Translations under genes and position numbers: made by a program
The notes under the pieces: model-generated
The model's input: only the letters and a program-made list of their open reading frames with translations
Told to the model about the DNA's origin: nothing
Databases searched by the model: none
From: Lasiodiplodia sp. COLG20
Taxonomy: Eukaryota > Ascomycota > Dothideomycetes > Botryosphaeriales > Botryosphaeriaceae
NCBI GenBank assembly: GCA_009801085.1
Contig: VNWV01000008.1
Span: forward strand, 2,450,397-2,514,396
Length of the DNA stretch: 64,000 nucleotides
Reading direction: 5' to 3'
Part shown: positions 32,792 to 34,448 of the stretch, piece by piece
How positions within the stretch are numbered: position 1 is the first letter of the stretch
Layout of the letters: the number at the start of each line of letters is the position of its first letter

Positions 32792-34448
32792 TTAAGCACT
32801 ACGCTCCAAGTCGCGTTCCGTATCGACTTGTGGGCATGTCTTTTCCTCAACCTTTTCCGACTGTGTATTGGGAGCTTTATCGAGTGTGGTCTGCGGCGTG
32901 AGGCTGTCGTTGCGGGAGGCGTCGGTATTGTATGAGTTCGCGGTCTTCGGAGGCTTCGCATCGTCGCAGATGTACTGGTCGTAGGTCATGCCAGCGAGCT
33001 TGGCGTCTTTGAGGGTGCGACGGTTGCGGTAAACCCAGGAGAAGTGCCAGAGCATGATACCAATTTCGAGGACCATGCTGTTAGAAGATTAGCATTTGTG
33101 TCGTCGTTGCTTACAAGGAAGCTTGTGCATGATATGTGATTGGATGTAGGGTATCGTGGAAGAGAAACAATAATTGCAGCCAATAGAATCCGACGTACCA
33201 AACAATGTAAAGGGTGCCTCCCAGGTAGTCGAAAGTTTGTTGGACAACTACAACATTAGTTAGCATGGCGCTAGACGTGCCTCATCCTGCATGGAACTCC
33301 TTACTCAAGGCCAGCAGCGAGAAAGCAGCACCGCAAAAGTCCGTGGTCAGGAAGAGGAAGCCTAGGTTTCAGTGAGCAAAAGGGCTTACAAGTGAGTACA
33401 AGTACGTACTGATGTCCTTCGCCCTTCCATCGCGCTTCCACTGCTCCCAGTACATGGGAAGCAGACCCACAGCAAGCAGCACTGCTGCGATAACGCCCAC
33501 GGTGACAATCGGCCACTCCACGCCTCTCGAGTAGGGCCCCTGAATATGTTAGCCAATGTACTTCACAGAACCAAATGTCGCCTACCCTGAGGGTCAGAAT
33601 TAGAAGCGCCTCGACGCCTCCAAAGACAAGGCCTGTGACTACGGCAGTGAGGGTGGCGGTCCAGACTCTCCAATGGCTACAAAACGTCAGTGAATTGCTG
33701 GCGGTACTCGGGAGGCAGATACGCACTCATGGTAGATTAGAGTTTGCGCCCAACAAATCAGCACCAGGGCGCAGAAGACCTGAGGCTGGACTTGTAATGG
33801 GATGTTGAAGTTCTTGAAACTGTCAGAAGGGCCCACTGTTTGGAAGTGTGGAAAATGCGAACCTGCACGATGTTGTAGATGCCGAACGGTACGGCGGCTG
33901 AGACACGTCAGATGGTGGCTGGCTAGAATGGAAGCGAGGCGGCTCACCAGCAGCCCACAAGAAGGGCATGATCCATGGCAGGCCATCGGTCTCCTTATGG
34001 CGCCAATTGGTATAGATTCTACTCACGGTCAATGACTGACTCAGCGGAGGGTGGGTGAGTTTACGTACTGTGGGAGGATCTGTCACATTCAGGTTAGCTT
34101 GAGGCGTCGGGGAAGCCGGGTACAACGGCAATGACATACCTGAACACACCAGCATCTTCAATCGGCACAGTAATGTCAGCGTGATGTTATGGGGTGAATC
34201 GTGTCTTGGTTGCCTTACACTACGAGCAGTTAGCACGGATATCCCGGTTTGGGCTCGGCTTAAGTGACTTACCAGTGCCGATAGTCTGCAGACAACACAG
34301 GGAATGTTAGTAGAAAGACCACAATGGTTGGGTGAGGCACGTACGCCTAGTATGCTCGCAGCCTATGATATCACCATGTCAGTATCAAGTTCAAGTGAGG
34401 GAGACAGCATTCGGCACGTACCGGCGGGATGTGCTCCTGGGGTGCCAT
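32792..34448 (-). CDS. PQ-loop repeat membrane protein, 14 exons
   Basis: Spliced model of 296 aa (891 nt): 34448-34422, 34362-34345, 34285-34273, 34219 (1 nt), 34155-34140, 34079-34069, 34018-33948, 33897-33863, 33812-33727, 33676-33586, 33539-33410, 33361-33305, 33247-33199, 33077-32792. All introns are GT-AG, 46-63 nt except a 121-nt last one. The protein starts MAPQEHIPPAASILGTIGT, then VCWCVQILPQIYTNWRHKET and DGLPWIMPFLWAA, the first PQ-loop with its PQ dipeptide; further helices are LVLICWAQTLIY, ALLILTL, VIAAVLLAVGLLP and FLTTDFCGAAFSLLAL. Seven-helix PQ-loop proteins include vacuolar amino-acid exporters and SWEET-like carriers; substrate unknown. The hydrophilic C-terminus is Asp/Lys/Thr-rich. 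The single-base exon is needed to keep frame. Confidence 0.85.

What the first reader, a model, noticed from the sequence alone, without database searches (positions are those of the whole stretch)
34219..34219. Single-nucleotide exon in a PQ-loop gene
The codon after TIGT (ends ACT G at 34273) must be completed before TGC TGG TGT GTT CAG at 34154-34140. Joining the two exons directly leaves the frame one base short, and every alternative AG in between leads to a stop. A lone T at 34219 is flanked by an acceptor with a branch-like GCTAAC then CGTAG on one side and GTAAGG on the other; using it gives G-T-A = Val, making TIGTVCWCVQ, what PQ-loop homologues have as far as I recall. The flanking introns are then 53 and 63 nt, normal for this gene, and the total coding length (891 nt) is divisible by three only with this base. 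One-base exons are extremely rare (one is known in plant APC11).
Basis: partly seen in the sequence, partly recalled or inferred. Interest (0 to 1): 0.87.

Follow-up and report, generated by a model that had tools for sequence, protein, structure and literature searches.

The report
One-base exon in fungal membrane gene
A fungal membrane-protein gene keeps one of its protein-coding pieces as a single DNA letter between two introns, and the same one-letter piece appears to be shared by many related fungi whose published gene models get it wrong.

Summary
Confirmed and extended. On the minus strand, 34448-32792 is a 14-exon PQ-loop gene (891 nt with stop) of a Botryosphaeriaceae fungus close to Lasiodiplodia theobromae. 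T34219 lies between AG and GT and two ordinary introns (53 and 63 nt), each with its own donor, CTRAC branch site and acceptor. The five annotated Botryosphaeriaceae orthologues listed all fail here, four matching, at the junction, wrong routes through the window's own DNA; a transcript-like Botryosphaeria protein has the Val. Faulty annotations from Pleosporales, Trypetheliales and possibly Sareomycetes point to the same base: of 35 disrupted models 15 fit exactly one missing T and none two, and four Pleosporales models read T, donor, branch site, acceptor and exon 5 in register. One-base exons are known (plant APC11, VPS55; Fusarium CYP621A; fungal mitochondrial rnl), so this is a new member of a known kind, apparently the most widely shared fungal nuclear case. 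RNA proof is lacking, and about half of the transcript-like clade proteins start after the segment and cannot testify.

The parts
34422..34448 (-). exon 1 (27 nt), start codon at 34448, MAPQEHIPP
   Evidence: same MAPQEHIP start in P0001-P0005
34345..34362 (-). exon 2 (18 nt micro-exon), AASILG
34273..34285 (-). exon 3 (13 nt micro-exon), TIGT plus first base G of the Val codon
34220..34272 (-). intron 3 (53 nt): donor CTG|GTAAGT, branch GCTAAC 34234-34229, acceptor TCGTAG
34219..34219 (-). exon 4: single nucleotide T, middle base of Val codon G|T|A
   Evidence: orthologues
34156..34218 (-). intron 4 (63 nt): donor AGT|GTAAGG, branch GCTGAC 34180-34175, acceptor TTGAAG
34140..34155 (-). exon 5 (16 nt micro-exon), last base A of Val codon then CWCVQ
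34069..34079 (-). exon 6 (11 nt micro-exon), ILPQ (Gln codon completed by exon 7)
33948..34018 (-). exon 7 (71 nt)
33863..33897 (-). exon 8 (35 nt)
33727..33812 (-). exon 9 (86 nt)
33586..33676 (-). exon 10 (91 nt)
33410..33539 (-). exon 11 (130 nt)
33305..33361 (-). exon 12 (57 nt)
33199..33247 (-). exon 13 (49 nt)
32792..33077 (-). exon 14 (286 nt) with stop codon

Best explanation
T34219 is a constitutive single-nucleotide exon of a PQ-loop membrane-protein gene. Shown: it is flanked by AG and GT; each neighbouring intron has a complete set of its own signals; only with it is the conserved TIGTVCWCVQ made; annotated orthologues show the same one-base deficit or the same T-plus-donor arrangement. 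Inferred: the two introns are removed one after the other by intron definition, because their splice sites are one base apart and cannot be occupied by two spliceosomes at once. Most likely intron 3 (strong donor GTAAGT) goes first and joins G to T; the new junction CTGT|GTAAGG then serves as donor for intron 4 (resplicing). The opposite order would leave usable sites too. Inferred as well: the arrangement is old in Dothideomycetes and persists because the base lies in a nearly invariant codon (Val or Ile) of the first PQ-loop segment.
For: Gene model of 891 nt with Pfam PQ-loop E 2e-23. Route enumeration: site score 39.7 over two introns (19.8 per intron) against 14.0 and 13.1 for the two rivals; both flanking introns have a perfect CTRAC site. 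Faulty Botryosphaeriaceae annotations equal wrong routes through the window's DNA at the junction: direct join TIGTDAGVFR = N. ribis P0003; +4 donor joined to the acceptor before T = Diplodia corticola P0004 (identical for TIGTGNVRQPRHD, then diverging); GTAGTG donor = L. theobromae P0001; exon 3 to exon 8 = Botryosphaeria dothidea P0129. Transcript-like P0002 contains a 115-residue segment of P0129 exactly and reads TIGTVCWCVQ. Of 149 proteins in which the motif was located, 35 are disrupted; all 35 are NCBI annotations, against 0 of 48 proteins from other sources. Of the 35, 15 fit exactly one missing T, 0 fit two missing bases; null 6 of 20,000 six-mers. In 2 of the 15, P0205 Pyrenophora teres and P0098, all 24 tested family positions fit after one T (no null was run for that length). 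Six models read G/A, T, GTRNG; 4 of 6 (P0164, P0182, P0188, P0199) continue through a 52-59-nt intron with one CTRAY-compatible site starting 17-21 nt from its end into AG|exon 5; a scan of 54,904 positions of all 238 proteins gives 4 such places, the number these four account for. P0100 Neocucurbitaria reads a retained 49-nt intron 3 and AG|T|GTRNG.
Against: No RNA read or cDNA from this organism, and no fungal DNA other than this genome could be fetched; orthologue evidence comes from proteins back-translated with degenerate codons. 'Transcript-like' rests on short contigs (1.3-5.1 kb) and uninterrupted reading, not on a stated RNA source. I chose the 13 transcript-like clade members for the tree because they span the segment; 12 further non-NCBI proteins on contigs of 1.3-5.1 kb start only in exon 7 (MLILW and like) and cannot testify, and a missed base, a retained intron or a truncated contig would all produce them. 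Donor 4 is at the weak end (3.5 bits) and acceptor 4 is AAG, not YAG (intron 8 also uses AAG). One genome annotation inside the clade (Periconia P0158) is intact, and Cryomyces, a dothideomycete, is intact and falls outside the clade. The clade has weak support (0.28; 0.47 without Sarea), was drawn after seeing the labels, and neighbouring 11-18-nt exons also derail gene callers. Five of the 35 disrupted models (P0063, P0148, P0168, P0184, P0219) I did not explain, and for five more (P0012, P0147, P0154, P0159, P0161) I have only an inference.
Confidence: 0.92

Rival explanations
1. Exon 3 ends four bases later, using GTCACT as donor, and one 113-nt intron leads to exon 5; the protein reads TIGTGKCWCVQ.
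For: In frame and free of stops. The Diplodia annotation P0004 fits this donor, and Pleomassaria P0012 TIGTGICWCVQ would fit a similar choice (inference).
Against: Donor TAA|GTCACT scores 0.0 bits, below all 13 model donors (3.3-9.7). It adds a residue in a segment where 114 of the 149 proteins with the motif located are normal and where all 13 transcript-like clade proteins that span it have Val or Ile alone.
Confidence: 0.03
2. Intron 3 is retained and a donor GTAGTG near its end is used, as in the deposited L. theobromae model, adding 17 residues.
For: In frame, no stop; the window's translation is identical to P0001 there.
Against: Donor scores -0.9 bits; the insert is the translation of an intron with its own GTAAGT donor, GCTAAC branch site and TAG; none of the 18 transcript-like proteins in the tree has such an insert.
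Confidence: 0.02
3. Sequencing error or a frame-shifted, dying gene.
For: A direct exon 3-exon 5 join is one base short.
Against: The same one-base deficit appears in separate annotations of N. ribis, Macrophomina, Pyrenophora, Viridothelium and others; the rest of the 296-codon frame is open and 95% identical to L. theobromae over 272 residues.
Confidence: 0.01
4. [quoted passage not shown]
For: The geometry is close: G|intron|T followed by a second intron, each fully equipped (definition from passages of PMC12403724).
Against: It would remove G34273 and T34219, leaving 889 nt and the wrong frame; homologues have Val or Ile at this place.
Confidence: 0.01

Closest known systems
APC11 single-nucleotide exon, Arabidopsis and land plants (PMC4674806, PMC8831610)
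   Same: One constitutive base between two GT-AG introns, needed for frame; gene models missed it; deep conservation
   Different: Plant gene, base A in Arabidopsis, stretch between the outer exons 422 nt; cDNA and reporter proof exist
VPS55 1-nt micro-exon, land plants (PMC8831610)
   Same: One base in the N-terminal part of a membrane protein, annotations wrong without it, conserved splice sites
   Different: Plant; forms with and without it both occur in some species; RT-PCR proof
CYP621A single-nucleotide exon, Fusarium (PMC12940212)
   Same: Fungal nuclear gene, short introns, middle base of a conserved codon, inferred from frame and relatives
   Different: Base G (Gly codon), P450 gene, reported in one genus, 18 SRA reads as proof; here T (Val/Ile codon), a PQ-loop gene and several orders
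One-nucleotide exon in mitochondrial rnl of Ophiostoma, between group II introns (PMC12308204)
   Same: A single base kept between two adjacent introns in a fungus
   Different: Mitochondrial, self-splicing-type introns, rRNA gene; not the spliceosome
[D1,2] stwintrons of ascomycetes (PMC12403724)
   Same: Two adjacent canonical introns that must be removed in succession
   Different: No base is kept between them; here one base is kept

Membership tests
single-nucleotide exon | one base flanked by AG on the 5' side and GT on the 3' side | tested here: met
single-nucleotide exon | each neighbouring intron complete in itself (donor, branch site, acceptor, usual length) | tested here: met
   53 and 63 nt; CTAAC and CTGAC
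single-nucleotide exon | base required for the conserved reading frame | tested here: met
   891 nt with it; 3 in-frame routes, only this one gives the family sequence
single-nucleotide exon | base present in mature RNA | tested here: inconclusive
   13 transcript-like clade proteins that span the segment carry the codon, 12 others start after it; no RNA from this organism was available
single-nucleotide exon | conservation in orthologues | tested here: met
   (from proteins, not DNA)
[D1,2] stwintron | internal intron between G1 and U2 of the external donor, nothing retained, exons in frame | tested here: not met
   would leave 889 nt (arithmetic)
recursive-splice ratchet point (zero-length exon) | AG immediately followed by GT (recalled definition) | tested here: not met
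   one base T lies between
PQ-loop protein (PF04193) | match over the Pfam cut-off | tested here: met
   82.3 bits, cut-off 22, residues 11-69

The most novel reading that the evidence does not exclude
A one-base exon has been inherited since the common ancestor of most Dothideomycetes (Botryosphaeriales, Trypetheliales, Pleosporales) and perhaps earlier, together with Sareomycetes and Piccolia, and is freed from its two introns by obligatory successive splicing; it has escaped notice because nearly every gene model examined is wrong at this codon. A further possibility not excluded: failure to include the base is frequent or regulated, which would explain transcript-like proteins that restart in exon 7.
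Probability: 0.65. Interest if true: 0.75.

Novelty: new member of a known kind. Interest (0 to 1): 0.66.

Why it matters
By the searches made here it would be the second fungal nuclear gene reported with a single-nucleotide exon and, unlike the Fusarium case, one spread over several orders. It offers a natural system in fungi for asking how intron-defining spliceosomes keep a one-base exon. It also marks a systematic annotation error: none of the five Botryosphaeriaceae models listed, and 1 of the 64 genome-annotated clade members put into the tree, has this segment right (29 of the 64 lack the motif altogether, some of them partial records), so similar exons may be hidden elsewhere.

Tried and rejected
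Direct join of exons 3 and 5, and all other GT-AG routes of one or two introns of at least 35 nt; GC donors were not enumerated. The [D1,2] stwintron reading (frame lost). Search for fungal relatives' DNA in viral contigs (no match) and genome contigs (12 pattern matches, none a relative). Search of the own genome for a processed copy that could act as a cDNA: five stretches of the locus itself and two distant paralogues (38% and 37% identity); the 38% paralogue has no TIGT segment in its open frame, so it gives no intronless yardstick. No solved structure by sequence. No Rfam match in the window. Literature: searches listed no paper on a one-base exon in a PQ-loop gene or in a nuclear gene of Dothideomycetes; the library covers open-licence papers only, and one search listed 20 of 3,277.

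The idea that models lacking exon 6 (11 nt) might explain the one-base deficit (1 + 11 = 12) was tested: skipping exons 4 and 6 does restore frame, which explains several models, but P0205 and P0098 stay in the one-base-short frame for all 24 tested positions, exons 5 to 7, so the deficit is not a by-product. The exon 6 presence test missed exon 6 read in the shifted frame and is superseded. On re-checking I found that my transcript-like set had been chosen for spanning the segment; one search recounts all 92 non-NCBI proteins, and I lowered the main confidence from 0.93 to 0.92 for that reason.

Full report
What is in the window. The gene lies on the minus strand, 34448-32792. Homology and splice sites give 14 exons of 27, 18, 13, 1, 16, 11, 71, 35, 86, 91, 130, 57, 49 and 286 nt, 891 nt in all with the stop. 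The protein of 296 residues has one Pfam match, PQ-loop, E 2e-23, residues 11-69. The nearest named protein is from Lasiodiplodia theobromae (Botryosphaeriaceae), 95% identical over 272 residues outside the disputed part, so the window is from a close relative of that species.

The observation. Exon 3 ends with ACT G at 34273 and exon 5 begins A TGC TGG at 34155. Joined directly they are one base short and read TIGTDAGVFR. T34219 stands between AG and GT. Intron 3 (53 nt) has donor CTG|GTAAGT, branch site CTAAC with its A 10 nt from the end, and TCGTAG; intron 4 (63 nt) has AGT|GTAAGG, CTGAC with its A 20 nt from the end, and TTGAAG. With a small weight matrix from the 11 other introns, donor 3 scores 9.1 bits, donor 4 3.5, acceptors 5.2 and 6.0; leave-one-out values for the other 11 introns are 3.3-9.7 for donors and 1.6-6.0 for acceptors. 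So both introns are ordinary for this gene, donor 4 being at the weak end.

Alternatives. With GT-AG introns of at least 35 nt and at most two introns, three routes keep frame and avoid stops: the one-base exon (39.7 bits over two introns, 19.8 per intron, TIGTVCWCVQ), a donor 4 bases downstream (14.0, TIGTGKCWCVQ) and a donor GTAGTG inside intron 3 (13.1, 17-residue insert). In 20,000 shuffles of the interior, 1,958 had any AG-N-GT split, 28 reached the observed site score, none with T. Across both strands of the window 6 of 414 AG-N-GT places reach the score, so the signals alone are not unique; frame and homology add the rest.

Botryosphaeriaceae. The capped hit lists hold five annotated orthologues from this family (families), and all five fail at this codon. 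Four failures match, at the junction, wrong routes through the window's own DNA: N. ribis P0003 the direct join (TIGTDAGVFR); Diplodia corticola P0004 the +4 donor joined to the acceptor before T and read on through donor 4 (identical for TIGTGNVRQPRHD, then diverging); L. theobromae P0001 the GTAGTG donor (identical through TIGTGKSLKPSPNRDIRANCSCWCVQ); Botryosphaeria dothidea P0129 exon 3 to exon 8. The fifth, Macrophomina P0005, is one base short. P0002, from a contig of 1,809 bases with source code lgn, contains a 115-residue segment of P0129 unchanged and reads TIGTVCWCVQIIPQ. A protein with all 13 introns gone, micro-exons included, is best explained as read from cDNA; I take lgn to be a public assembly of sequence-archive reads, which is recalled and not stated by the tool.

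Beyond the family. Three protein searches gave 238 distinct proteins (120 of 124 hits listed; 31; 120 of 510 listed). The motif LGT[IL]GT or near variants was located in 149; 114 continue with the normal [VI]xW[CS][VI]Q and 35 do not; in the other 89 it was not located: they start further down, lack the segment, or were missed by the expression (P0132 and P0137, for example, look normal). By source, 146 NCBI or named proteins split into 66 normal, 35 disrupted, 45 not located; 92 others into 48 normal, 0 disrupted, 44 not located. Of the 35, 15 can be read as the normal segment if exactly one T is missing after the first base of the codon, none if two bases are missing; 6 of 20,000 random six-mers pass the same test. 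Matched length after one T is 24 of 24 positions in 2 of the 15 (P0098, P0205), 10 in 5, 6-7 in 8. Several of the short ones also skip the 11-nt exon 6, which restores frame together with the lost base. Six further models read G or A, T, then a donor GTRNG (null 64 of 20,000). Four of these six, Pyrenophora tritici-repentis P0164, Sporormia P0199, Lentithecium P0182 and Massarina P0188, all Pleosporales, continue in register through an intron of 59, 52, 53 and 53 nt, each with one CTRAY-compatible site starting 17-21 nt from its end, to AG and exon 5; a scan of 54,904 positions of all 238 proteins gives 4 such places, the number these four account for. The other two, Boeremia P0169 and Piccolia P0030, do not read on into exon 5. 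Neocucurbitaria P0100 (Pleosporales) reads a retained 49-nt intron 3 with donor GTRAGT, one CTRAY site, then AG|T|GTRNG. Three models with Gly (P0147, P0159, P0161) and one with Arg (P0154) in place of Val/Ile have the correct length; they are what results if an aligner takes the extra base from the G of the donor next to exon 3. That is inference, as is a +4 donor for P0012. P0063, P0148, P0168, P0184 and P0219 remain without a worked explanation.

Proteins that cannot testify. Among the 44 non-NCBI proteins without a located motif, 12 start in exon 7 (M[LT][IT]LW) on contigs of 1.3-5.1 kb and are spliced further down. Skipping of the one-base exon, a retained intron upstream, or a truncated contig would all give this. 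They neither support nor exclude the exon, but they mean that the transcript-like evidence is a selected part.

Tree. A tree of 125 proteins (106 genome-annotated and 18 transcript-like ones chosen by hand from the 238, the latter because they span the segment, plus the window) on the part downstream of the segment places nearly all faulty models in one group with Botryosphaeriales, Trypetheliales, Patellaria, Piccolia and Pleosporales, with Sarea (Sareomycetes) at its base. Inside, 1 of 64 genome-annotated proteins is intact (Periconia), 34 have the motif but are disrupted and 29 lack the motif; the 13 transcript-like ones are intact, as chosen. Outside, 37 of 42 genome-annotated ones are intact, and the 5 transcript-like ones, two of which lie on longer contigs (8.5 and 54 kb). 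The contrast is striking, but the group was drawn after seeing the labels, its support is 0.28 (0.47 without Sarea), the proteins are not independent, three models are from one Pyrenophora species, and other micro-exons also cause errors. Cryomyces, a dothideomycete, is intact and falls outside the group.

Mechanism. The exon is one base, so exon definition cannot act and the two spliceosomal footprints overlap (established knowledge). Removal must then be successive. The stronger donor of intron 3 suggests it goes first, after which the junction CTGT|GTAAGG serves intron 4 (4.2 bits against 3.5 before); the order is inference. This is the same kind of successive excision that has been shown for stwintrons (passages of PMC12403724), but a stwintron keeps no base between its introns.

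Known cases. Seen: PMC12940212 parts 1 and 2 of 3, PMC4674806 part 1 of 3; passages of PMC8831610, PMC12403724 (one search found none of its terms), PMC5639578, PMC11121469, PMC12308204, PMC8208691 (reference list only). PMC12940212 calls the Fusarium CYP621A exon the second one-base exon reported and the first fungal one; PMC8831610 had described plant VPS55, and PMC12308204 describes one in mitochondrial rnl of Ophiostoma between group II introns, with a similar case cited for Ceratocystis. Placozoan mitochondrial cox1 has one too (PMC5436844, listing only). No paper on a PQ-loop gene was listed.

Verdict. A real one-base exon with high probability; a new member of a known kind, notable for its likely age and for the uniform failure of the published models examined.

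Noticed in passing
34069-34448 (-): Six successive coding pieces of 27, 18, 13, 1, 16 and 11 nt are separated by introns of 53-63 nt, so 86 coding bases are spread over 380 bases; the start of the PQ-loop domain is built entirely from micro-exons.
   Followed up: partly
32792-34448 (-): A six-frame Pfam PQ-loop search of the own genome gave 14 matches and none at this locus, most likely because the domain is cut into micro-exons.
   Followed up: partly
P0101, P0156, P0170, P0171, P0176, P0178, P0179, P0180, P0185, P0187, P0201, P0218 (protein ids): Twelve non-NCBI proteins on contigs of 1.3-5.1 kb start in exon 7, after the one-base exon; frequent loss of frame upstream (missed base or retained intron) or truncation could explain them.
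   Followed up: no
P0147, P0159, P0161, P0154 (protein ids): Four annotated proteins have Gly or Arg instead of Val/Ile at the codon of the one-base exon, as expected if a transcript aligner took the extra base from the neighbouring donor G.
   Followed up: partly
P0051, P0064, P0067, P0069, P0072, P0077, P0079, P0088, P0056 (protein ids): A second PQ-loop paralogue in Pleosporales (mostly APQIWRNYRTK type) forms its own group in the tree and is annotated intact at this codon.
   Followed up: no
22184-24838 (-), 26117-27580 (-), 18516-19595 (-), 51992-53350 (-), 56263-57210 (-), 42225-43157 (-): Open frames nearby match SMC hinge, glycosyl hydrolase 16, sulfatase, carboxylesterase, amino-acid permease and PROPPIN/WD40 families; ordinary fungal gene content.
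   Followed up: no
48001-52000: G+C content drops to 0.454 against 0.51-0.61 in the other 4-kb steps of the window.
   Followed up: no
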